DNA of 56,177 bases from an uncultured Eubacteriales bacterium (lineage in GTDB: Bacteria > Bacillota > Clostridia > Peptostreptococcales > Anaerovoracaceae), in the NCBI GenBank assembly GCA_900320285.1, contig ONRQ01000004.1:1-56177 (forward strand). The letters are read 5' to 3'. Positions 4,395-20,353 of the stretch are shown piece by piece (the first letter of the stretch is position 1; each line of letters opens with the position of its first letter). The translations under genes were made by a program, and so were the position numbers. Under the pieces are notes generated by a model. The model had not been told where the DNA came from, ran no database searches, and saw only the letters and a list, made by a program, of their open reading frames with translations.

Positions 4395-5207
4395 ATGAAG
4401 AGAAGGATCGCAGCATTATTAATAATCGCAGCCATGCTCATAGGCTGCATGCCGCTAATGGTAATGGCGGAGGATTCCGCTGCACCGGCGGCAGCAGGGA
4501 CAGGCAGCACGGCTGAACAGAAAGCGGCACCTGTGACGAGACAGGTCCACCTTCTTATGGTAGATAACCGCAAGGACAACAAGCGTGTCGTCAAGGAGTT
4601 CAAGAAGGTAGGCGTAAAGGTCACTACCGTATACAGCCTGAAGAAGGTCGATCCTGATAAATATGACGGCCTCATTATTCCGGGCGGTCACAATATCGAT
4701 CCGAGGATGTACGGCGCCAAACGCAGCAAGTACACGTACGGCACCAGCATAAAGAAAGACAGGATGCAGGTTGAGGCGGTGAAGAGATTTGCTGAAGCGG
4801 GCAAGCCGGTACTCGGTCTGTGCAGGGGATGCCAGCTCATCAATGTCGCGTTCGGCGGAACGATAAAGCAGCACATCAAGTGGCACAAGGGCTACCGCAA
4901 GGTAAAGAACGTCAAGGGTTACTGGATGTACAGCATCTACGGATCAAAGCGCAAGACCTACCACTTCCATCACCAGTGCGTGAAGAAGCTGGGCGAAGGC
5001 CTGGTCGCAACATCATATGACGTAAAGAGCAAGCACATCGAGTCCATACAGCACATATCACTGCCTATATATGGCGTGCAATGGCATCCGGACTGCAATA
5101 CAAAGAAACAGGGAAACAAGTTTTTCAAAGAATTCAAGAAAGTCTGCCTTGAAAATATGGCTGAGCAGCAGGCTAAAAATGAAAGCGCCGGTCAGAAAGT
5201 CGAATAG
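4395..5207 (+). CDS. Exported class I glutamine amidotransferase (peptidase C26-like)
   Basis: The catalytic domain resembles gamma-glutamyl hydrolase/PuuD. The nucleophile is C143 in GLCRG, the oxyanion region is IIPGGHNIDPRMYG (about 94-107), and H231 lies in QWHPD. The usual Glu after HP is Asp here, a change shared with the paralogue at 12092. Unlike cytosolic PuuD, the protein has an N-terminal signal with a possible lipobox (L15-I16-G17-C18) followed by an Ala-rich linker, so it should act outside the membrane, as a lipoprotein or a secreted protein. A gamma-glutamyl bond in peptidoglycan or in a polymer decoration is a reasonable target, but this is inference. The start follows AAAAGGACGG, and it lies 11 bases before the next gene. 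Confidence 0.85.
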   Translation: MKRRIAALLIIAAMLIGCMPLMVMAEDSAAPAAAGTGSTAEQKAAPVTRQVHLLMVDNRKDNKRVVKEFKKVGVKVTTVYSLKKVDPDKYDGLIIPGGHNIDPRMYGAKRSKYTYGTSIKKDRMQVEAVKRFAEAGKPVLGLCRGCQLINVAFGGTIKQHIKWHKGYRKVKNVKGYWMYSIYGSKRKTYHFHHQCVKKLGEGLVATSYDVKSKHIESIQHISLPIYGVQWHPDCNTKKQGNKFFKEFKKVCLENMAEQQAKNESAGQKVE

Positions 5208-6175: not shown

Positions 6176-6184
6176 GTATCATAT

Positions 6185-6487
6185 ATGAACATTGATAAGG
6201 CTACTATTATAGAAGCAATCAAAAGCCATAATGAACTTGCAACAGATCATTATGCTGAAGTAATGGCAGAAAAAATCGTCAATGAGCTTGATGAGCGCCT
6301 TGAAAAAAATTTAATCGAATGGGTCAATAATGAGGAGATTTCCGATCTCTGGATAGGCACATACTGTGTCAACGCAATAATGGCTATTCGCGGGGACAAT
6401 AACTTCCTCGATGCTTTGCTGACTATGAACCTTTATCTTCAGGATGAGGACAAAGGAACAAGAAGGATCTGGAGAGGAAGAAGATGA
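6185..6487 (+). CDS. Small helical protein of the VirD4/metallopeptidase cassette, unknown function
   Basis: I do not recognise this 100-residue protein. It is predicted to be soluble and mainly helical, acidic in its first two thirds and basic at the very C-terminus. The central WIGTYCVNAIMAIRG and the following LDALLTMNLYL look like a compact hydrophobic core. Its ATGA overlap with the metallopeptidase gene (4 bases) implies translational coupling. By analogy with small proteins encoded beside secreted effectors, it could be a chaperone or adaptor; this is inference only. Confidence 0.6.
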   Translation: MNIDKATIIEAIKSHNELATDHYAEVMAEKIVNELDERLEKNLIEWVNNEEISDLWIGTYCVNAIMAIRGDNNFLDALLTMNLYLQDEDKGTRRIWRGRR

Positions 6488-7977
6488 GCTTCTTAGATAG
6501 AATGCTTAACCCCGGATATGGGAATCATCCTACAGCCTACGGCCAGCTAAGCGACAGAGATCTGTTTGGAATGTACAGAGGCGAAGTGTGGAGTGGACTC
6601 AACGAGAGTTCCCGGCGGCAGCTTCTGCAGGAGACTGTAAACCGGGCAGCTGCATCAATGGGTGAAAAAGGTTCATGCGAAGTAAAATTTGCAGATATGA
6701 GCCCCGATACTTTCGGCCGCCAGCATGGAAGTGTAATAGAAATCAATAAAGATATCTTTACAAACGATATGCTGCACGCTAATGTTTGCGGCCAGTCCAT
6801 CGATGTTCCTTTTAAGGATTCAAATTATAAAGCTCTCGAAACTGTACTGCATGAGAATATACACGCCTGGCAAAACCAGTGTGTTGATGGCACTATCGAT
6901 CATCCGAACAAAGAACTCATAGATGAGTATCGGGCAAACGGCTTCACGCCTTCGGAGGTTACGGATAAGAATGGTGTTCAGAGAAATGGTTCTCAGTATC
7001 TTAGCGGTCTGGATCCTGATCATGGAAATCATCTTTATTATTTCCAGTCAACGGAAAGGGACGCGCATAAGTTTTCGGAAATCCAGACACAGGAAATAGT
7101 CGATCAGAATCTAAAAAACTTCGGACCTGATGAAACAGCAGATGCCTACAAAGCAGATGTCGAGGAAAACGGCTTCCAGGCAACCTGGAATGAAGCAAGA
7201 GAACAATTCGGATATGATGATTTTGAGAAAGATATTAATAATACTCTCAAGAACAGCTACAACGGAACAGATATAGAAGTAAATCCGGAGATGGAAGCTC
7301 TCGTTCATAACGAAATGGCTGAGAGCTATGACGAACAACATGGCATCCGAGCAAATGAAAATCAGGCTGTTGAAGAGAATCCGGAACAGAATGGTGAACA
7401 ATCAGAAGGGGACAAAGAAATGAGAGGACGCAATCCCGAAACATGGCCTGAACAGCTTGATCTTACAGATCAGCCAGAGACCTATGGAGAAGATTCTCCG
7501 ACTGTGGAGGACCCGGAAGTCGAAAAATGGCAGCGGCTGAGTGAAGTTCCTTTCGCCGGAGATCAACGGAATAGCGAGACTGAAGAGAGCCCTGATGAGC
7601 TTGCTCCACAGCAGGCATCAGAGCAGGCGCCACAGCAGGCACAAGCTGCTGAAGAGTCGCCAGCCGAGCTTGCACCGCAGCAGGCATCAGAGCAGGCACC
7701 ACAGCAGGCACAAGCTGCTGAAGAGTCGCCAGCCGAGCTTGCACCGCAGCAGGCACAAGCTGCTGAAGAGTCGTCAGCCGAGCTTGCATCGCAGCAGGCA
7801 CAAGCTGCTGAAGAGTCGTCAGCCGAGCTTGCATCGCAGCAGGCATCAGAGCAGGCACAAGCTGCTGAAGAATCGCCGGCGGATCTGGCCCCACAGTATA
7901 ATCAGCAGGAACCTTCGACAGCTCCTTCAGAGAATGAATCTGAAGACGAAGAGAGAAGACAAGGATACTCATACTAA
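6484..7977 (+). CDS. HExxH metallopeptidase-like protein with repetitive Gln/Ala/Glu tail
   Basis: The N-terminal half (about 1-260) carries a zincin motif, H123-E124-N-I-H127, inside LHENIHAWQ. E and D residues in ELIDEY (about 144) and STERDAH (about 187-193) are candidates for the third zinc ligand. There is no signal peptide and no membrane helix. From about residue 270 the chain is acidic and low in complexity, and from about 366 to 470 it is built of tandem units of the type AAEES-P/S-AELA-P/S-QQ plus an ASEQAPQQ spacer, which are almost identical in DNA. It ends in a charged tail. The ATGA overlap with the preceding gene and the VirD4-like ATPase 15 bases downstream suggest one functional unit. 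It may be an exported effector or a processing protease, but neither is shown. Confidence 0.75.
   Translation: MSFLDRMLNPGYGNHPTAYGQLSDRDLFGMYRGEVWSGLNESSRRQLLQETVNRAAASMGEKGSCEVKFADMSPDTFGRQHGSVIEINKDIFTNDMLHANVCGQSIDVPFKDSNYKALETVLHENIHAWQNQCVDGTIDHPNKELIDEYRANGFTPSEVTDKNGVQRNGSQYLSGLDPDHGNHLYYFQSTERDAHKFSEIQTQEIVDQNLKNFGPDETADAYKADVEENGFQATWNEAREQFGYDDFEKDINNTLKNSYNGTDIEVNPEMEALVHNEMAESYDEQHGIRANENQAVEENPEQNGEQSEGDKEMRGRNPETWPEQLDLTDQPETYGEDSPTVEDPEVEKWQRLSEVPFAGDQRNSETEESPDELAPQQASEQAPQQAQAAEESPAELAPQQASEQAPQQAQAAEESPAELAPQQAQAAEESSAELASQQAQAAEESSAELASQQASEQAQAAEESPADLAPQYNQQEPSTAPSENESEDEERRQGYSY
7579..7893 (+). repeat. In-frame tandem repeat inside the metallopeptidase gene
   Basis: A 45-bp unit (15 residues, QAQAAEES-P/S-AELA-P/S-Q) recurs with near-identical sequence. 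In some copies it is interrupted by a 24-bp spacer encoding QASEQAPQ. The first copy (around 7579-7609) and the last are degenerate. Neighbouring copies share the same silent changes, which indicates recent duplication and makes length variation between strains likely. Confidence 0.85.
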
Positions 7978-7992
7978 ATAGGAGCTTGAACC

Positions 7993-9315
7993 ATGGCAAT
8001 TGTTAGAAATGTCAATTCAGAGATGCCGATATTCGGAGATCATCTTTCTGATAGATGCGACTATAAAGATAAGAATCCTCTGTATATGATGCCAGGAACC
8101 AATATACGTGGTGAGTCGTTATTCATCCCTATCGGTGAAAAGCTCCTGTCAAGGCATATGCTTTTCCTGGGCGGTATAGGCACGGGAAAAACCAATGCGA
8201 TGAACTGCTTCATCAGAAACACAAGGCGCATATTGGGCGAGAACGATGTGGCGATCATCTTTGATACAAAAGGTGATTATTATAAGGAGTTTTATGCACC
8301 CGGTGACATTGTAATAAGCAATGACGAAAGAGCAACCGGTGAATCCGGGGTCAATTATTGGAATATCTTCAATGAGATCTCTGCGGATGACAGGATCGAG
8401 GAAAACGTTTCTGAAATCACAAAATCCATATTCGCAGAGAAGACAGAAAGATCAACACAGCCTTTTTTCCCGAATGCTGCCAGAGACCTGTTGTATGCAC
8501 TTATACTCCACATACTCAGGACGGAATCTCTGAAGGACAGACGCAACAACAAGTCTCTGCGGGCTTACCTTGATATGATGACGCCGGGACTGATGAAGGG
8601 AGTGCTTGAGCAGCACAAGGATCTGAAGGCCATGCAGTCATACATAGATGATGAGACATCTGGTCAGACTCTCGGTGTGCTGTCTGAACTCCAGCAGGCA
8701 GTCAGAGAGGTATTTGTAGGAAACTTCAAGAAACCCGGGACGATCTCCCTTCGTGAAATCGTAAAGAACAAGGGCGGCAAAGTTGTATTTATCGAGTATG
8801 ATCTCGGCCTCGGGGAAGTCCTTACACCTATCTACAGGCTGCTGATAGATCTGGCGATAAAGGAGGCTCTGAGCCGCAAGGAGAATGAAGGAAATGTTTA
8901 TTTCTTCATAGATGAGTTCCGCCTGCTCCCAAAGCTGACACACATGGACGATGGCATCAACTTCGGCAGGAGCCTGGGAGCAAAATTCTTCGTGGGAATA
9001 CAGAATATCAACCAGGTGATCGCTGCATACGGAGAGGACGTAGGCAGAAGCATGCTGTCGGGATTCGGTACTACATATGCTTTCAGGATAAATGACAGCC
9101 TGTCGAGAGAATTCATAAAGAATCTGTCTGGGAAAAACATAAAAAAGCAGACCTTTATGTCCAGCGTTCAGAATCAGGGTATTTCTGAGCAGCTGAGAGA
9201 AGCATATGTTATCGAAGATGCAGATATCAATAACCTGAGGATAGGAGAGTCCATAGTAACAACTATAGCAGGCGAACCGTTTGTCTTCAGATTCAATGAA
9301 TATATAAGGGCGTAG
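7993..9315 (+). CDS. VirD4/TraG-like AAA+ ATPase (type IV coupling-protein family)
   Basis: This is a RecA-fold ATPase of the VirD4/TraD/HerA group. Walker A is G60-G-I-G-T-G-K66-T67, and Walker B is FFIDE (D307, E308), followed by RLLPKL and the GRSLGAKFFVGIQNINQ sensor region typical of TraG-like C-terminal domains. At 440 residues it lacks the N-terminal membrane helices of conjugative coupling proteins, so it is soluble or recruited by a partner. Conjugative ATPases of this kind select DNA or protein substrates. No relaxase, VirB4 or other mating-pair gene is visible in this window. Tight spacing with the metallopeptidase upstream and the zinc-ribbon membrane proteins downstream suggests these are its partners. 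The start follows TAGGAGC. Confidence 0.88.
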   Translation: MAIVRNVNSEMPIFGDHLSDRCDYKDKNPLYMMPGTNIRGESLFIPIGEKLLSRHMLFLGGIGTGKTNAMNCFIRNTRRILGENDVAIIFDTKGDYYKEFYAPGDIVISNDERATGESGVNYWNIFNEISADDRIEENVSEITKSIFAEKTERSTQPFFPNAARDLLYALILHILRTESLKDRRNNKSLRAYLDMMTPGLMKGVLEQHKDLKAMQSYIDDETSGQTLGVLSELQQAVREVFVGNFKKPGTISLREIVKNKGGKVVFIEYDLGLGEVLTPIYRLLIDLAIKEALSRKENEGNVYFFIDEFRLLPKLTHMDDGINFGRSLGAKFFVGIQNINQVIAAYGEDVGRSMLSGFGTTYAFRINDSLSREFIKNLSGKNIKKQTFMSSVQNQGISEQLREAYVIEDADINNLRIGESIVTTIAGEPFVFRFNEYIRA

Positions 9316-9342
9316 TATCACTGCTGTTATAAGGAGGTCATA

Positions 9343-10128
9343 ATGTTTTGCGAACATTGCGGTAAGGATATTGGGAACGCGAGAGATTTCTGCCCTCACT
9401 GTGGAATGCCTATTGAGAGTGAGCCGGCAGCACCGGTCCGGAATGAAAGGCCTGCGGTAAACAGGATGAGTTCCAGCTCAATAAGCAACTCCGATATGCG
9501 CGGAACATCCGGCGCTTATTCAGCATCAGTAGCAGGTAAAGTAGACAATATCGTCCTTGCCGAGGGGGAAATCGTTGTAAAAAGATACAATTGTGTTGAT
9601 GTCAAAGGCGTAAAGGGTTATCTGACGGTTACAAACAAAAGAATGATGTTCAATTCTTTTGGCGCAAACAGTCGCTACAGTCAGGAAGTGACGCTTTCAT
9701 CTGTATCGGGCCTCAGATGCCACAGAGGCATAAACTTTGATGCCGGAAGAATAATACTTGGAGGCATAATTATACTCATCGCACTTTATCTTATGATTTC
9801 TCTGGGAAAGTACTCAAGCAGGATGATAATGATCGGGGTCTTTGCTATCGTAATAGGAGCAGTGATTATATATTCAGGCATAAAGAAGACTTTTCTTATC
9901 CGAGTATTTGCAAAGGATGTCAGTTCGTCACCGATAAGCATCGGTCAGGGGCCACGGTCACTGTGGGGCAATTCAGCACTGTATGCATTTGAAAGTGAGC
10001 CTACACCGGAAACAGACGTAATGCTCAATGAACTGGGGGCAATGGTACAGGATCTTCAGACGATGGGGGATCTGGCGATCGATAAATGGCAGAACATGGT
10101 AAGCCAGCAGGAGTTGCCGTCATTATAA
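9343..10128 (+). CDS. Zinc-ribbon, PH-like domain and two-helix membrane protein
   Basis: The N-terminus is a zinc ribbon (C3, C6, C17, C20). A Ser-rich linker leads to a bacterial PH-like region (about 65-130) with GYLTVTNKRMMFNS, the usual pattern of these domains. Two membrane helices follow at about 138-158 and 162-182, then a soluble C-terminal segment. The ribbon and PH-like domain are probably cytoplasmic. Such proteins are common scaffolds in clostridia, and no enzyme motif is visible. It has a good ribosome site (AAGGAGGT, 9331-9338). It is placed 27 bases after the ATPase and 12 before the next zinc-ribbon protein. Confidence 0.72.
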   Translation: MFCEHCGKDIGNARDFCPHCGMPIESEPAAPVRNERPAVNRMSSSSISNSDMRGTSGAYSASVAGKVDNIVLAEGEIVVKRYNCVDVKGVKGYLTVTNKRMMFNSFGANSRYSQEVTLSSVSGLRCHRGINFDAGRIILGGIIILIALYLMISLGKYSSRMIMIGVFAIVIGAVIIYSGIKKTFLIRVFAKDVSSSPISIGQGPRSLWGNSALYAFESEPTPETDVMLNELGAMVQDLQTMGDLAIDKWQNMVSQQELPSL

Positions 10129-10140
10129 AAGGAGATCTTT

Positions 10141-11202
10141 ATGGCAAGCCGATTTGAAATATTATACAAACTGGATCAGCAGACTTACTCTGTCGGACTG
10201 CCGGTGGTGATTACAGGAGGCAATCTGCTTCAGGATAATTACAACGGAAGACTGTTTGCCCAGCTGAAACTTAAGAGCATTTCATTCAGACAGATTTCTG
10301 CGGTAGAGGTCATGATCCAGACGATGGATAATTACAACAGGCTGGTTGAAACCATTGCATTTGTCTATGACAATCTGCGCCTGTACCGTGATAATACTGC
10401 CGGAGATGATATTAGTATTCCTCTTGAGGATAACAGGGGAAAAAAGTTGAATGCCGTTGTTACCGCTGTGGTGGATTCTTCAGGGAATGAATGGCGTGAA
10501 AACGCCCCTAAGGTGAGTGTCATTGAAGAAGCAGCACCGCTTGAAAGCCGTCTGGACGGAGATAAACAGCTTGCAAAGCAGTACCGCCTGAAATACGGTT
10601 TTGAACATAATTATGCACCGACAGTAGGCGAGGGCATCTGGACCTGCTCATGCGGTGCGATCAATCTGGATGAAGAGGATGCATGCCATTCATGCGGATT
10701 TCTCAGAAAAGAGATAATGAATCCAGACTTTAATGCGCTTGAACAGGATAAACGCCAAAGACAGAAGAAGGAAAAAGAGCACACTCGCAATATTATTATT
10801 ATCGGAATCGCAGCTGCTCTTGTTCTTGCTATTGGCATAATAGTTATATCTGTAATATCGCCAAAGGAAACCTTCGAGGATGAGTATTATGACGAGTCAT
10901 ATGAAGAAGAGTATCCTGTTGAAGAAGCCGCGGACGAGGGCTACGAAGATCCATATTATATTGTTGATGAAGTGTATTATACCCAGGCGGTGCTTAAGGT
11001 AAGGGAAGGTCCGGGCAAGGACTATAGACAGCTTACCCGTGATGAACTCGCAGGTGAAGATTATTACAATTCTGAAGATTATCCTGATGCACTGCTGAAA
11101 AAGGGCAGTCCTGTCGTATGCCTTGAGATGTCAGGCGACTGGATGAGGATCGAATCAGGCTGGATATGCGTCAGGGATGGTGACGAAACGCTGGTAGAAT
11201 AA
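10141..11202 (+). CDS. Zinc-ribbon membrane protein with extracytoplasmic SH3-like domain
   Basis: The N-terminal region (about 1-130) is a beta-rich domain that I do not recognise. A RanBP2/rubredoxin-like zinc ribbon (WTCSCGAIN...CHSCG) lies at about 166-185. It is followed by a Lys/Arg-rich segment, one membrane helix (about 218-240), a strongly acidic Glu/Asp/Tyr linker (about 244-280) and a C-terminal bacterial SH3-like domain (VLKVREGPGKDYRQL to the end). The positive-inside rule puts the ribbon inside and the SH3-like domain outside, where such domains often bind peptidoglycan. It starts after AAGGAGATC. The build matches the neighbour at 11216: an inner ribbon, one helix and an outer binding domain. 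Confidence 0.72.
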   Translation: MASRFEILYKLDQQTYSVGLPVVITGGNLLQDNYNGRLFAQLKLKSISFRQISAVEVMIQTMDNYNRLVETIAFVYDNLRLYRDNTAGDDISIPLEDNRGKKLNAVVTAVVDSSGNEWRENAPKVSVIEEAAPLESRLDGDKQLAKQYRLKYGFEHNYAPTVGEGIWTCSCGAINLDEEDACHSCGFLRKEIMNPDFNALEQDKRQRQKKEKEHTRNIIIIGIAAALVLAIGIIVISVISPKETFEDEYYDESYEEEYPVEEAADEGYEDPYYIVDEVYYTQAVLKVREGPGKDYRQLTRDELAGEDYYNSEDYPDALLKKGSPVVCLEMSGDWMRIESGWICVRDGDETLVE

Positions 11203-11215
11203 GCGGGAGAAAGAA

Positions 11216-12085
11216 ATGGCTAAGTATTGTAAGTATTGCGGAAAACAAATAGGTGATGATGCTCAGTTCTGCAGGTTCTGCGGAATGAAATTCGATGCTG
11301 CCCCTGTGCAGGAGGATTCTATAGGTCTGAACACCGGAAATGAAAAAGTACAGGAACCGAAGCCTGTGACTGTGGAGCCTGAAAGAACAAAAACTGTATA
11401 TGCTCCTGCTTCTTATAAAAAGCCTGAACACAGGGAACAGCTTTATACTCCGCCTGAAGCAACTGAAGCAGCTGCTTCAGATATTACTTCAGGAAACAAA
11501 AGAGTTCTGATCATTGCAGCAGCAGTAGTTTTGATAGCAGCTATCATCGGAGGAGTTGTGATCGTGCTGAACCTGCACAAGGACAAGGTACCGGCTGTTA
11601 TCCCGGAATCTGCCATTGAATTCGAAGGAAGACACTATGAGGTATATAATGAGTCCATGTCGTGGAATGCTGCAAAGGACGCCTGCGAGGCAAAAGGCGG
11701 TCATCTGGCAACAATAACGAATGCAGATGAGCAGGCGTTCATAGAGGTGCTTCTTGAGGACAGCGGGCTTAAGAAGTACCACTATTGGCTCGGCGGTACG
11801 GACCGCGAGCAGGAAGGTGCCTGGAAGTGGTTGACTGAAGAGGATTTTGCCGGATATACAAACTGGGAACAGGGAAAAAATACACAGCCTAATAACAATG
11901 AGAGCAATGACCCTGAGCATGGAGAGGATTATATGGAGATCCAGACCACTAAACCTGTGGACAACTCAGGCGAGTATATGAAATGGAATGACATATGCGA
12001 GAGCGGCAATTCCAAGAGCAATCAGGGATCACCGTGGTTCTATTCGCAAGAACATTTCGGATATATCTGTGAGTGGGAAGAGTGA
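11216..12085 (+). CDS. Zinc-ribbon membrane protein with extracytoplasmic C-type lectin domain
   Basis: Residues 5, 8, 19 and 22 are the cysteines of an N-terminal zinc ribbon. After a flexible linker a single membrane helix spans about 97-120. The remainder (about 132-289) is a C-type lectin-like domain. WNAAKDACEAKGGHLATI, YWLGG and GAWKWL are landmark motifs; Q-P-N (224-226) occupies the calcium-site position of the EPN/QPD motif, W-N-D (257-259) is the second ligand motif, and C157 with C285 is the expected long disulfide. QPN is intermediate between the mannose-type EPN and galactose-type QPD signatures, so sugar specificity is open. The topology suggests an outward lectin with an inward ribbon that could contact the ATPase complex. 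Confidence 0.82.
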   Translation: MAKYCKYCGKQIGDDAQFCRFCGMKFDAAPVQEDSIGLNTGNEKVQEPKPVTVEPERTKTVYAPASYKKPEHREQLYTPPEATEAAASDITSGNKRVLIIAAAVVLIAAIIGGVVIVLNLHKDKVPAVIPESAIEFEGRHYEVYNESMSWNAAKDACEAKGGHLATITNADEQAFIEVLLEDSGLKKYHYWLGGTDREQEGAWKWLTEEDFAGYTNWEQGKNTQPNNNESNDPEHGEDYMEIQTTKPVDNSGEYMKWNDICESGNSKSNQGSPWFYSQEHFGYICEWEE

Positions 12086-12091
12086 TATTTT

Positions 12092-12883
12092 ATGACAGAT
12101 AAAAGAGCAGGCAGAAACAGGATACTGACCGCTCTCATAGCACTGATGCTGATAGTGATAGCTGCGATTGGCGGTTATCTTTATGGCCACGGCAAGACAG
12201 CAATATCGGAAGAAGAGGAAGTGATCCCATCAACTGAAAGGGCCCCGGTCGCTGTCATATGCGACTACGATACAGAGGATGCGGAACGAGTTCAGCAGTA
12301 TATGAAAAAAGCGGGGTTTGATGTTGAAAGGATCGGTCTTATCGAAGATCTTGATGTCGATAAATACGATGCGATTGTAATACCCGGCGGCCACAGTGTG
12401 ACACCTAGCATGTATGGAGCGGAGAGACACCCTAAGACAAAGGATACGGATGTAGATAAGGACAGGTTCCAGTTTGCCGCGGTACAGATGTTTATTGAAG
12501 CGGAAAAACCGGTCCTTGGCATATGTCGCGGAGAGCAGCTTGTCAACAATGTGCTTGGAGGAACGACCATACAACACATGGATGAGGGCTGGCATAAAGA
12601 ATACAGAACAGTAAGGATAGCAGAGGGAACCTGGCTTTATGACCTTCTGGGCACCGAAGCATCAACATATCATTATCACCACCAGTGTGTCGATGAACTT
12701 GGCGACGGACTCTATGCTACACAATGGGATCCTGAAACCGGTCACATCGAGGCATATGAGCATAAAAAGCTTCCTGTTTACGGACTGCAGTGGCATCCTG
12801 ACTCAATGGATGATGCAGGAGTAGAAGTGTTTAAAGAATTCAGAAAAGTTGTTGAAGAATATATGAGAGGCGAAAGTAACTGA
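12092..12883 (+). CDS. Membrane-anchored class I glutamine amidotransferase (peptidase C26-like)
   Basis: This is a paralogue of the protein at 4395. One N-terminal helix (about 11-30) serves as an anchor and places the enzyme outside. The catalytic cysteine is C145 in GICRG and the histidine is H235 in QWHPD. As in the paralogue, the usual Glu of the C-H-E triad is Asp, and both share HYHHQCV-type and PSMYGA/PRMYGA loops. The family hydrolyses gamma-glutamyl amides. The natural target outside the cell could be a gamma-linked glutamate in the wall or in a decoration. It starts 6 bases after the lectin gene and ends 1 base before the GTG of the next, so it is probably cotranscribed with both. 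Confidence 0.84.
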   Translation: MTDKRAGRNRILTALIALMLIVIAAIGGYLYGHGKTAISEEEEVIPSTERAPVAVICDYDTEDAERVQQYMKKAGFDVERIGLIEDLDVDKYDAIVIPGGHSVTPSMYGAERHPKTKDTDVDKDRFQFAAVQMFIEAEKPVLGICRGEQLVNNVLGGTTIQHMDEGWHKEYRTVRIAEGTWLYDLLGTEASTYHYHHQCVDELGDGLYATQWDPETGHIEAYEHKKLPVYGLQWHPDSMDDAGVEVFKEFRKVVEEYMRGESN

Positions 12884-12884
12884 A

Positions 12885-18775: not shown

Positions 18776-20353
18776 ATGCGTAAAAGAATTCTTGCGATCC
18801 TTATGGCATTTGCTCTCTTCGTTGTGATGGGTCCTGTCGAGATGTTCGCATTTGCGACAGACGACGAAGAAGCTGCTGAGGGCACAAAAGTCGAAATGCA
18901 GTCTGAAGAAGCAGACGCTGAAAACGGTGAGGCAGGAGATGCTGTCGTTGAAGGCGAAACAACTCCTGTAGAAGAAGCAGTAGAAGAAGCTGCTCCGGCT
19001 GAGGGAGAAGCAGTAGAAGAAGCTGCTCCGGCTGAAGGAGAAGCAGCCGAAGAAGCTGCTCCGGCTGAGGGAGAAGCAGCTGAAGAAGCTGCTCCGGCTG
19101 AGGAAGAAGTAACACTTGAACAGGCTAATGTAGCGAGTCTTACCATTACGGTAGGCGCTGTAACAGCAAGTTCTGTACAGATGTCATGGGCAGAAACGCT
19201 TGATGCCGGAGAGACTCTTACAATCAAATATGCCGGTGGAGAACTGGCGGGCGTTACAGGCAATTCCTGCACAGTTTCAGGCCTTACTGCAGCAACTGAT
19301 TATACATTTGAGTTTTTCTCAGGCAGCAACAAGGTTGGTCAGGCAAAAGCCACAACAGCTCCTGGTCAGGTTCCTGCATTCAGAAAAGTGTCCAGCTACA
19401 AGACTGTAGTCCTCAAATGGAATGCAGTTCCTGGTGCATCCAAGTATGAGATCAAGGTAAATGGTGCATTATACGGCAGCACAAGCGGTACCTCACTGAC
19501 ACACAAAGTCGGCTCAGAAAAGGATATCATCAATCTTTTAAACAAAGGCAAGGGCGAAAAGTACTCCGGCAACCTTGACGGCAAGGACCGCTTCACCTAT
19601 ACGATCAGTGCAAAGGACGCAAACGGTAAAGTCCTGGCTGAATCAACAACAACAGGTGATATCGTAAAGACTCTGTACTACAAGCTCACTTTCAAGGGCG
19701 GCGCTACACTTACCAGCCACTCCGGCGGCAAGAAGAAGATCAATATCAAGAAGGGCGCAGTAGTCTATGCAAGAGGCTTCACAAATGGTAAGTACATCTT
19801 CGACTACCAGTGCAAGGATGGCAAGGTCAGAACTTTCCATACAATGAAGATCAGAGTTAAGGCTAAGCTTTCACCGCATATCACTGCTATCAAGAACAAG
19901 AGAGGTGAGAATACACAGCCGGCTTATACTGTTGAAGAGGCAGAGCAGTATGCAAATGACCGTGGTATCAAGAAGGCAACTTCAAAGTACATGATCTGGG
20001 TCAACCTGTTCTCGCAGAAAGAGTATATCTTCAAGAAGGTAAGCGGCAAGTGGAGAATTGTGACTGCAAACGGATACGGCCTCAAGAACAAGGTAATGGC
20101 TGCACTCCCTGTATCAACAGGAAAGGCTTCAATGCCTACAGCTACAGGATCCACAAAGATCAACCGTAAGCTCAAGAGCCAGCACGGAACACCACTGTGG
20201 AATGTCACAAAGTACTTCTCGGTACACGGTGTACAGAAGAGATGGCCGAAAGTCGGCTGGCCTGAATCAGGCGCATGCGCAAGAAACCAGATGCCTAACG
20301 CAAAGTGGATCTACAATAAGATCCCTAAGTACACAAGGGTATTCGTACACTAA
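18776..20353 (+). CDS. Secreted L,D-transpeptidase (YkuD-like) with acidic repeats
   Basis: L,D-transpeptidases make 3-3 cross-links in peptidoglycan or attach proteins to it. After a signal peptide (about 1-27) comes an acidic stretch with four EEAAPAEGEA-type repeats (about 70-112), a fibronectin-III-like domain (about 120-200), a second Ig-like region (about 200-300) and the YkuD-like domain (about 370-525). The catalytic cysteine is C501 in ESGACARN. The usual SHGC motif is therefore SGAC here, with the upstream VHG histidine about 34 residues before it. The ending AKWIYNKIPKYTRVFVH is characteristic. It has its own promoter (18674-18703), an AGAAGGAA ribosome site and a terminator after the stop, so it is a single-gene unit. 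Confidence 0.83.
   Translation: MRKRILAILMAFALFVVMGPVEMFAFATDDEEAAEGTKVEMQSEEADAENGEAGDAVVEGETTPVEEAVEEAAPAEGEAVEEAAPAEGEAAEEAAPAEGEAAEEAAPAEEEVTLEQANVASLTITVGAVTASSVQMSWAETLDAGETLTIKYAGGELAGVTGNSCTVSGLTAATDYTFEFFSGSNKVGQAKATTAPGQVPAFRKVSSYKTVVLKWNAVPGASKYEIKVNGALYGSTSGTSLTHKVGSEKDIINLLNKGKGEKYSGNLDGKDRFTYTISAKDANGKVLAESTTTGDIVKTLYYKLTFKGGATLTSHSGGKKKINIKKGAVVYARGFTNGKYIFDYQCKDGKVRTFHTMKIRVKAKLSPHITAIKNKRGENTQPAYTVEEAEQYANDRGIKKATSKYMIWVNLFSQKEYIFKKVSGKWRIVTANGYGLKNKVMAALPVSTGKASMPTATGSTKINRKLKSQHGTPLWNVTKYFSVHGVQKRWPKVGWPESGACARNQMPNAKWIYNKIPKYTRVFVH
18983..19114 (+). repeat. Four 33-bp in-frame tandem repeats
   Basis: Units start at 18983, 19016, 19049 and 19082. Each encodes an 11-residue acidic Ala/Pro-rich segment (EEAAPAEGEA plus V or A) in the L,D-transpeptidase. 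They differ at a few silent positions. Confidence 0.85.

What the first reader, a model, noticed from the sequence alone, without database searches (positions are those of the whole stretch)
6185..12085. Six-gene cassette: metallopeptidase, VirD4-like ATPase and zinc-ribbon surface-display proteins
A soluble VirD4/TraG-like ATPase is encoded with no relaxase, VirB4 or mating-pair genes in view. Instead there is an HExxH protein with a repetitive tail (coupled by ATGA to a small helical protein) and three membrane proteins that share an inward zinc ribbon and differ outside: none, SH3-like, C-type lectin. The logic of an ATPase, a cargo and partner, and outward binding modules suggests an undescribed export or contact-dependent system. 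Spacing is 6-28 bases throughout.
Basis: inference. Interest (0 to 1): 0.78.

Follow-up and report, generated by a model that had tools for sequence, protein, structure and literature searches.

The report
Toxin-export cassette with tagged cargo
A bacterium carries a compact gene cassette, with relatives in several bacterial phyla, that pairs swappable toxin-like proteins and protector genes with a DNA-pump-like motor, and each motor lineage goes with its own short tag at the tail end of those proteins, which looks like a previously unrecognised way of exporting weapons.

Summary
The six genes are real and operon-like. They belong to a recurring module: a soluble TrwB/VirD4-type ATPase (g3) beside variable cargo genes, mostly in Clostridia but also in contigs of Chloroflexi, Bacteroidota and others. 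A g4-type membrane protein (zinc ribbon, PH fold, transmembrane hairpin) lies within four genes in 41 of 46 well-flanked loci.

Cargo have swappable N-terminal domains. 6 of 30 scanned are nuclease-toxin families in Pfam, and 2 of 10 scanned partners are SUKH immunity families. A disordered tail follows, then a short tag (window: GYSY). Among related ATPases the last four residues follow the ATPase, not the toxin domain (0 of 5000 permutations). In one locus two unrelated cargo share a near-identical tail.

VirB4-type genes are undetected in 6 of 17 carriers, two of them 99% complete. In seven genomes whose cassette contig is known, no VirB4-type gene or relaxase lies on it. One sister genome shows the empty site.

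Best reading: a polymorphic effector-immunity system whose coupling-protein-like ATPase selects cargo by C-terminal tag and, with g4, exports it. Linkage, swapping and tag co-variation are shown by sequence; export, killing and toxicity of the window's own cargo are inferred. My paper searches found no description.

The parts
6185..6487 (+). g1: 100-aa partner of the HExxH cargo; candidate immunity protein or chaperone
   Evidence: No Pfam family up to E=1. Matches at E=5.4e-8 an HMM built from nine ~100-aa proteins adjacent to HExxH cargo elsewhere; homologue at the same place in L040.
6484..7977 (+). g2: cargo protein; N-terminal HExxH metallopeptidase-like domain, long tail, C-terminal tag
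   Evidence: No Pfam family. Alignment of 16 HExxH-domain proteins: invariant H123, E124, H127 and E191; 16 members near this ATPase family in the 77 loci.
6850..6864 (+). HExxH motif (HENIH) of g2
7597..7845 (+). repeat-coded Q/A/E-rich tail of g2
   Evidence: Tandem repeats with 69- and 45-base units, 96-97% matches.
7963..7974 (+). C-terminal tag GYSY of g2
   Evidence: Y-[ST]-Y ending also on the adjacent cargo of L044, L045, L046, L047 and L049, which have ATPases of the same branch.
7993..9315 (+). g3: soluble TrwB/VirD4-type ATPase
   Evidence: PF10412 6.2e-43, PF02534 5.4e-17; best solved relative TrwB, 1.4e-12; Walker A pattern in 75 of 77 and Walker B pattern in 76 of 77 ATPases of the set.
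8170..8193 (+). Walker A of g3 (GGIGTGKT)
9343..10128 (+). g4: membrane protein (zinc ribbon + bacterial PH fold with inserted TM hairpin + C-terminal helices), core partner of the ATPase
   Evidence: g4-family HMM match within 4 genes of the ATPase in 59 of 77 loci, and in 41 of 46 with at least 3.5 kb on both sides; fold.
9742..9876 (+). predicted TM helical hairpin of g4 (residues 134-178)
   Evidence: AlphaFold model helices 134-154 and 159-178, block pLDDT 91-97.
10141..11202 (+). g5: zinc-ribbon-like motif (by eye), one TM, SH3-like outer part; accessory
   Evidence: Family (cluster c8) in 4 of 77 loci; SH3_3 below cut-off.
11216..12085 (+). g6: zinc ribbon, one TM, C-type lectin domain; accessory
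   Evidence: Lectin_C 7.9e-14, Zn_Ribbon_1 9.3e-7; homologue with lectin domain in L049.
6176..12884 (+). stretch between the GDPD and glycosyltransferase genes (cassette plus a downstream peptidase C26 gene) that is absent from a sister genome
   Evidence: In G008 (L159) GDPD and the glycosyltransferase gene are 9 bases apart.

Best explanation
This is a polymorphic effector-immunity cassette with its own delivery motor. Cargo proteins carry an exchangeable N-terminal toxin or enzyme domain, then a long disordered tail, then a C-terminal tag of about four residues (often [Y/M]-x-[Y/M/L/I]). The soluble T4CP-like ATPase (g3), expected to be a hexamer like TrwB, recognises the tag. It docks on the membrane through the g4 protein, whose TM hairpin may stand in for the two-helix membrane domain that ordinary coupling proteins carry in cis. 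ATP hydrolysis threads the cargo out of the cell. The small neighbour gene is an immunity protein (SUKH type in some loci) or a chaperone. Zinc-ribbon/TM proteins with lectin-like or other outer domains may hold the apparatus in the wall or bind target cells. Shown by sequence: linkage, toxin and immunity domains in some loci, domain swapping, tag-ATPase co-variation among related ATPases, and no detected VirB4-type gene on known cassette contigs or anywhere in several genomes. Inferred: tag binding, hexamer, membrane docking, export, delivery and killing, and toxicity of the window's own HExxH cargo.
For: Toxin domains: Tox-GHH (L045, L054, L056), Tox-HNH-HHH (L104, L052) and GH-E (L113), 6 of 30 scanned cargo above Pfam cut-off; 30 of the 67 genes at position -1 were scanned. 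Immunity: SMI1_KNR4/SUKH-1 beside a GHH toxin (L045) and Syd/SUKH-2 beside an HNH toxin (L104), 2 of 10 scanned partners above cut-off. Tag: 63 adjacent cargo chosen by position and length, not by motif. In pairs with close ATPases (tree distance under 0.8) and no BLAST similarity of the toxin part, last-four similarity is 1.80 against a null of -0.13+-0.35, 0 of 5000 permutations; with HMM-related pairs also removed 1.77 (77 pairs, 42 loci), 0 of 4000; N-terminal, residue 60-63 and -30..-27 segments show nothing, -12..-9 shows a smaller effect. One domain takes different endings with different ATPases: GHH with SYSY, NDISM, NNVSM, GYGY. Two unrelated cargo in L045 end SEGESSEEDQSYSY and SEGESSEEEQSYSY. 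Tails are low in hydrophobic residues (median 0.12 against 0.36 in control genes) and 48 of 63 cargo genes end within 30 bases of the ATPase gene. g4-family gene within four genes in 41 of 46 well-flanked loci that were found by the ATPase alone. No PF03135 or AAA_10 hit in G243 or G090, both 99% complete.
Against: No experiment shows export. 24 of 30 scanned cargo, and the window's own cargo and partner, have no toxin or immunity family above cut-off, so toxicity there is by analogy. Partners of clusters c3 and c13/c45 go with unrelated cargo, so they are not specific immunity proteins. 5 of 46 well-flanked loci lack a g4-type protein within four genes (L105 has one further off). Over all ATPase distances the tag trend is weak (last-four Mantel rho -0.114, 138 of 2000 permutations as extreme). 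Only 32 of 63 cargo fit the simple pattern, and some ParB-like cargo end otherwise (AYYR in L065, GAEQ in L050, SAEL in L114). A divergent branch (L116, L118, L119) shows neither tag nor g4. The g4/ATPase genome co-occurrence is partly circular, because the four genomes with both gave rows to the g4 profile.
Confidence: 0.6

Rival explanations
1. Intracellular defence: the ATPase senses foreign DNA or phage, as HerA-type ATPases do, and recruits or activates nuclease, peptidase and other effectors through their tails; partners keep the effectors silent. Nothing is exported.
For: PADLOC models for mads_8 (8.7e-12) and HerA (2.8e-6 and weaker) match part of g3. Nuclease cargo and partner proteins would fit an abortive-infection layout too.
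Against: Domains found are Pfam families named as toxins, and immunity families. The main partner is a membrane protein, and zinc-ribbon single-TM proteins lie within five genes in 32 of 77 loci. Cargo tails are very low in hydrophobic residues.
Confidence: 0.2
2. Accessory coupling protein: the ATPase hands tagged cargo to a T4SS or other secretion machine encoded elsewhere in the genome.
For: Classical T4CPs work this way (recalled, and PMC6536674 passages). Relaxases are found in 11 of 17 and AAA_10 genes above cut-off in 5 of 17 carrier genomes or records.
Against: G243 and G090 (99% complete) have no PF03135 or AAA_10 match, and G090 no relaxase either. WXG100 proteins of T7SS are undetected in 14 of 17. 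The g4 family lies beside the ATPase in 41 of 46 well-flanked loci. Other VirB subunits and other secretion systems were not searched.
Confidence: 0.12
3. Remnant of a conjugative element (decayed ICE).
For: The ATPase is of the T4CP family. A Curtobacterium relative (39% identity) lies on a 546-kb plasmid that has an AAA_10 gene above cut-off about 64 kb away.
Against: Walker motifs kept in 75 and 76 of 77, a recurrent compact layout and tag-ATPase co-variation are not decay. No relaxase or VirB4-type hit on the cassette contig in the seven genomes whose cassette contig is known.
Confidence: 0.04

Closest known systems
Bacteria-killing T4SS of Xanthomonadales (X-T4SS)
   Same: VirD4-family ATPase, effectors with a C-terminal recruitment signal, immunity genes usually upstream of effectors (PMC6536674, passages read).
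   Different: There the signal is the ~120-residue XVIPCD and all twelve class A T4SS subunits are present. Here the tag is a few residues, VirB4-type genes are undetected near the cassette, the ATPase lacks an N-terminal membrane domain and the partner is a PH/TM protein.
Classical polymorphic toxin systems (T5SS, T6SS, T7SS/LXG, PVC and others)
   Same: Toxin families Tox-GHH, Tox-HNH-HHH and GH-E and SUKH immunity; domain swapping.
   Different: Polarity is reversed: toxin N-terminal, tag C-terminal. Zhang et al. [quoted passage not shown] A 2025 paper (PMC12419801, passages read) does list a T4SS VirD4-binding domain among delivery hallmarks of some toxins.
T7SSb (EssC ATPase, LXG toxins)
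   Same: Toxin export in Gram-positives by an FtsK/HerA-type ATPase with small partners; EsaC has a PH-like fold (PMC3482391, passage read).
   Different: No WXG100 match in 14 of 17 carriers; the ATPase is TrwB-type and single-domain.
Type IV coupling proteins (TrwB, VirD4, TraG)
   Same: Homology over the TrwB domain (PF10412 6.2e-43; TrwB structure 1.4e-12).
   Different: No membrane domain in cis (1 of 77 has a TM call before Walker A), no relaxase or VirB4 on the known cassette contigs; all NCBIfam coupling-protein models below their cut-offs.
Dot/Icm effectors with C-terminal E-block (PMC3096851, abstract read)
   Same: Short glutamate-rich C-terminal signals recognised for type IV translocation.
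   Different: The ending here is Y/M-x-Y/M/L in many loci and varies by ATPase lineage; Dot/Icm genes were not searched.
T4SS of the Streptococcus suis 89K island
   Same: Reported protein secretion by a Gram-positive T4SS with VirD4 (PMC12857230, section 22 read).
   Different: That system has VirB1, B3, B4, B6, B8 and VirD4; no polymorphic toxin array or C-terminal tag is described in that section.

Membership tests
Polymorphic toxin system | Toxin domains of the recognised families | tested here: met
   6 of 30 scanned cargo above Pfam cut-off for nuclease toxin families; the window's own cargo has none.
Polymorphic toxin system | Adjacent immunity gene | tested here: met
   SUKH-1 (L045) and SUKH-2/Syd (L104) beside toxins, 2 of 10 partners scanned; IFS in L068 below cut-off. 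In the window g1 is only a candidate.
Polymorphic toxin system | Toxin domain exchanged while the trafficking part is kept | tested here: met
Polymorphic toxin system | N-terminal trafficking part with C-terminal toxin (classical layout) | tested here: not met
   Named toxin domains lie in the N-terminal part (GHH of L056 at 320-387 of 717) and the tag at the C-terminus.
Type IV secretion system | VirD4-family ATPase | tested here: met
   Pfam and solved-structure matches; NCBIfam coupling-protein models match below cut-off.
Type IV secretion system | VirB4-family ATPase encoded with it | tested here: not met
   PF03135 in 1 of 17; AAA_10 in 11 of 17 at 1e-3, 5 of 17 above cut-off; none on the cassette's contig in the seven genomes where that contig is known. 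One plasmid record has one about 64 kb away. The PF03135 control rings in 1 of 14 genomes, the AAA_10 control in 10 of 14.
Type IV secretion system | Other VirB subunits (VirB1, VirB3, VirB6, VirB8) | not tested
   Not searched by profile.
Conjugative element | Relaxase beside the coupling protein | tested here: not met
   PF03432 in 11 of 17 genomes or records; in G000 on C35 and C63, cassette on C44; none on the cassette contig in the seven genomes where it is known.
Type VII secretion system | WXG100 proteins in the genome | tested here: not met
   Matches in 3 of 17, none in G000, which is 78.6% complete.
X-T4SS (bacteria-killing) | Effector C-terminal signal specific to the ATPase | tested here: inconclusive
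   Tag-ATPase co-variation shown; binding not testable here; XVIPCD not searched as a profile.
HerA-type defence system | Defence against phage | not testable with these tools
   Only partial PADLOC matches.
Export system | Cargo found outside the cell, dependent on the ATPase | not testable with these tools
   Needs an experiment.

The most novel reading that the evidence does not exclude
A new, minimal protein secretion system spread over several phyla: a soluble T4CP-type hexamer plus a PH-domain/TM-hairpin ring forms the whole inner-membrane pump, selects antibacterial toxins by an evolvable C-terminal 'zip code' of about four residues matched to each ATPase lineage, and works without any VirB machinery.
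Probability: 0.45. Interest if true: 0.93.

Novelty: new variant of a known kind. Interest (0 to 1): 0.84.

Why it matters
[quoted passage not shown] Zhang et al. 2012 found no classical polymorphic toxins using T4SS (passages read). This module offers a small set of genes in which the question can be tested, and the natural tag-ATPase matching gives ready-made specificity experiments. It would also point to many unnamed toxin and immunity families, and to a reversed toxin layout that searches built on N-terminal trafficking domains would miss.

Tried and rejected
Classical conjugation: rejected because VirB4-type genes and relaxases are undetected on the known cassette contigs; some of these contigs are short (about 9 kb in G090 and G231), so this alone is weak there. 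T7SS as the exporter: rejected on WXG100 in 14 of 17. Phage origin: two scans of viral contigs gave no relative. PADLOC defence families: only partial matches. Mantel tests over all ATPase distances were weak (last-four 138 of 2000, last-five 234 of 2000), so the tag signal is confined to related ATPases. The regular expressions for the tag were written after seeing tails; the permutation tests use no pattern. Residues -12..-9 also show ATPase-linked similarity (2 of 4000 at distance under 0.8), so the tag may be longer than four residues. Genome co-occurrence of g4 and ATPase (5 and 7 of 391, both in 4; nominal P=1.8e-7): not used as an independent test, because the four genomes gave rows to the g4 profile; three ATPase genomes (G231, G362, G109) lack a g4 match and one g4 genome (G257) lacks the ATPase. 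Fold of the HExxH domain: no confident match (best E 0.54; non-significant rows include a lethal-factor-type peptidase); not pursued. g4 in Foldseek alone: best E 3.7e-3. HExxH as a marker of this system: rejected, since its profile hits 14 of 391 genomes, only 3 of them (G000, G231, G243) with the ATPase subfamily; several distant relatives lie beside other VirD4-like ATPases. Empty site: two relatives fetched; G008 shows it, in G003 the GDPD gene lies at a contig end and tells nothing. Rows dropped: four of 80 loci whose ATPase my gene caller did not return (L051, L069, L093, L117); 63 of 77 loci kept in the tag test (same-strand upstream gene within 350 bases, 100 aa or more, not g4 family). 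L066 matches the GHH HMM made here (3.6e-29) but no Pfam family at 0.05. Gene calls in fetched loci come from my own simple caller and may miss starts or small genes; 'ParB-like' is a label from recall without Pfam support.
Full report
WHAT IS THERE. The six ORFs at 6185-12085 are as described. g3 is a soluble ATPase of the TrwB/VirD4 coupling-protein family (PF10412 at 6.2e-43; TrwB structure at 1.4e-12); NCBIfam coupling-protein models match it only below their cut-offs. g2 has an HExxH motif and a repeat-coded tail. g6 has a zinc ribbon, one TM and a C-type lectin domain. g4 scores just below the Pfam zinc-ribbon cut-off; the g5 ribbon is seen only by eye and its SH3 match is below cut-off. 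Among 40 related genomes the ATPase is found in 2, the window's own and G009, both in the genus, which makes up 24 of the 40. In 391 genomes of the class 44 match the single protein at 1e-3, and 7 match the subfamily profile at 1e-40, the window's own included.

INSERTION. In a same-genus genome (G008, L159) homologues of the window genes at 1437, 3478, 5219 (GDPD), 12885, 13854 (two glycosyltransferases) and 14795 lie in the same order, and GDPD and the first glycosyltransferase gene are 9 bases apart. The cassette and a downstream peptidase C26 gene fill that gap in the window; the window genes at 2698 and 4395 also have no match in that stretch. The second relative fetched (G003, L160) has GDPD at its contig end and is uninformative. 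The cassette is therefore most likely an accessory insertion.

THE FAMILY. One scan of the species-genome collection gave 227 candidate stretches and 185 relatives, of which the best 80 were returned: by record title mostly Clostridia and other Firmicutes, with Chloroflexi, Chitinophagaceae/Niastella, and bins labelled Cloacimonadota, Bdellovibrionota, Micrococcales and Bathycorpusculum (archaeal, from recall). Most records are metagenome bins. My gene caller recovered the ATPase in 76 of 80 loci; with the window this makes 77. A g4-family match lies within four genes in 59 of 77, and in 41 of 46 loci with at least 3.5 kb on each side. Three Chloroflexi loci (L058, L073, L074) and L063 have two g4-family genes in tandem. 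In 391 genomes the g4 profile hits 5 and the ATPase profile 7, with 4 shared; the nominal P of 1.8e-7 is overstated because the four gave rows to the g4 profile. The one g4 genome without the ATPase has a zinc-ribbon/TM gene beside it and a transposase-like gene (recognised from recall) next to that pair.

CARGO. The gene just upstream of the ATPase is highly variable. Of 30 cargo scanned, out of 67 same-strand genes at position -1, 6 exceed Pfam cut-offs for nuclease toxin families: Tox-GHH in L045, L054 and L056, Tox-HNH-HHH in L104 and L052, GH-E in L113. L070 matches WHH below cut-off. Of 10 partners scanned, 2 exceed cut-offs for immunity families (SUKH-1 in L045, Syd/SUKH-2 in L104), and L068 matches IFS below cut-off. 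HMMs built here find GHH in 5 cargo, a ParB-like domain (my label) in 9 and the HExxH domain in 16. Four HExxH proteins carry a second domain behind it (GHH in L056, ParB-like in L050, L055 and L087), so HExxH may be a processing domain there rather than the toxin. HExxH cargo have a g1-like partner in 10 of 16, a zinc-ribbon partner (c3) in 5 of 16 and none called in 1. g1 matches the partner HMM built without it at 5.4e-8, and L040, with a 39% identical ATPase, keeps g1-HExxH-ATPase in order.

THE TAG. Cargo end in tails poor in hydrophobic residues (median 0.12 of positions -80 to -11 in 58 cargo of 160 aa or more, against 0.36 in 314 control genes) and then a short motif. A strict pattern fits 28 of 67 genes at position -1 and 12 of 695 same-strand genes at all other positions, ATPase and g4 included. 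Of the twelve, four carry a cargo domain seen elsewhere (L045, L046, L112, L115), four more have cargo-like tails (L049, L073, L075, L106) and four do not look like cargo. A looser pattern fits 32 of 63 cargo, against a mean of 1.6 (maximum 8) in tail shuffles and 33 of 455 other genes. Both patterns were written after seeing the data. The pattern-free test is stronger: among pairs of loci with close ATPases (tree distance under 0.8) and no BLAST similarity in all but the last 40 residues, last-four similarity is 1.80 against a null of -0.13+-0.35 (78 pairs, 0 of 5000), and 1.77 (77 pairs, 42 loci, 0 of 4000) after removing pairs that share an HMM family or any BLAST hit. Segments 2-5, 60-63 and -30..-27 show nothing; -12..-9 shows a smaller effect (2 of 4000). 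Over all distances the trend is weak, so the code seems to change between lineages. GHH ends SYSY (L045, L049), NDISM (L054), NNVSM (L056) or GYGY (L066); the ParB-like domain ends GYSY, GYGY, GIGY, YYGY, GMTL, DMSM, and in three cases otherwise (AYYR, GAEQ, SAEL). In L045 two unrelated cargo share 13 of their last 14 residues. Two Bacteroidota cargo end in QKR instead.

NO CONJUGATION MACHINE FOUND. In 17 carrier genomes or records PF03135 hits 1 and AAA_10 hits 11 (5 above cut-off); 6 have neither, among them G243 and G090, 99% complete. The control rings in 1 of 14 genomes for PF03135 and 10 of 14 for AAA_10. Relaxases occur in 11 of 17. In the seven genomes whose cassette contig is known (G000, G009, G243, G401, G362, G231, G090) none of these hits lies on that contig. 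On the Curtobacterium plasmid an AAA_10 gene lies about 64 kb from the ATPase relative. WXG100 proteins occur in 3 of 17. The window's genome is 78.6% complete, so absence there alone would prove little. Other VirB subunits were not searched.

MECHANISM. Putting these together, I read the module as an ATPase that picks up tagged cargo and, with g4, moves it across the membrane; partners protect or chaperone; zinc-ribbon single-TM proteins, found within five genes in 32 of 77 loci, are accessory. The alternative of an intracellular defence system remains open (0.2).

KNOWN OR NEW. The nearest functional parallel is the bacteria-killing T4SS of Xanthomonadales (PMC6536674, passages read). Zhang et al. 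[quoted passage not shown] PMC12419801 (passages read) lists a T4SS VirD4-binding domain among delivery hallmarks of some toxins. A 2025 review (PMC12857230, passages and section 22 read) treats effector translocation by Gram-positive T4SS as a long-standing question, with one reported case. Nine searches of an open-access library aimed at such a module listed no paper whose title or shown abstract describes it; I read passages, a section or an abstract of five papers in all, and most subscription journals are not held.

Noticed in passing
window 4395-5207 and 12092-12883: Two peptidase C26 (class I glutamine amidotransferase-like) paralogues flank GDPD and the cassette; neither has a match at the corresponding place in the sister genome G008 (L159).
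   Followed up: partly
L124 7117-9812 and 9901-11451 (G257): A g4-family gene and a zinc-ribbon/TM gene without the ATPase, next to a transposase-like gene: possible remnant of the cassette.
   Followed up: partly
L116, L118, L119 around the ATPase: A divergent ATPase branch without g4 or tag, with Hsp70-like and von Willebrand-like genes (by eye) and a different conserved downstream set (clusters c27-c29): possibly another system.
   Followed up: no
L054 11355-15460; similar clusters in L056 and L070: Downstream zinc-ribbon, VWA-domain and Ser/Thr kinase genes (Pfam, for L054 only): possible phosphorylation control in one lineage.
   Followed up: no
L150, L153, L156, L158: Distant relatives of the HExxH domain, some in multi-TM proteins, in neighbourhoods with other VirD4-like ATPases.
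   Followed up: no
L043 7373-9491 (G233): HExxH protein directly followed by a more distant ATPase relative and, two genes on, a multi-TM HExxH protein; a similar multi-TM HExxH protein lies downstream of the ATPase in L039.
   Followed up: no
window 18776-20353: Secreted-looking protein with an acidic, alanine- and proline-rich repeat region near its N-terminus.
   Followed up: no
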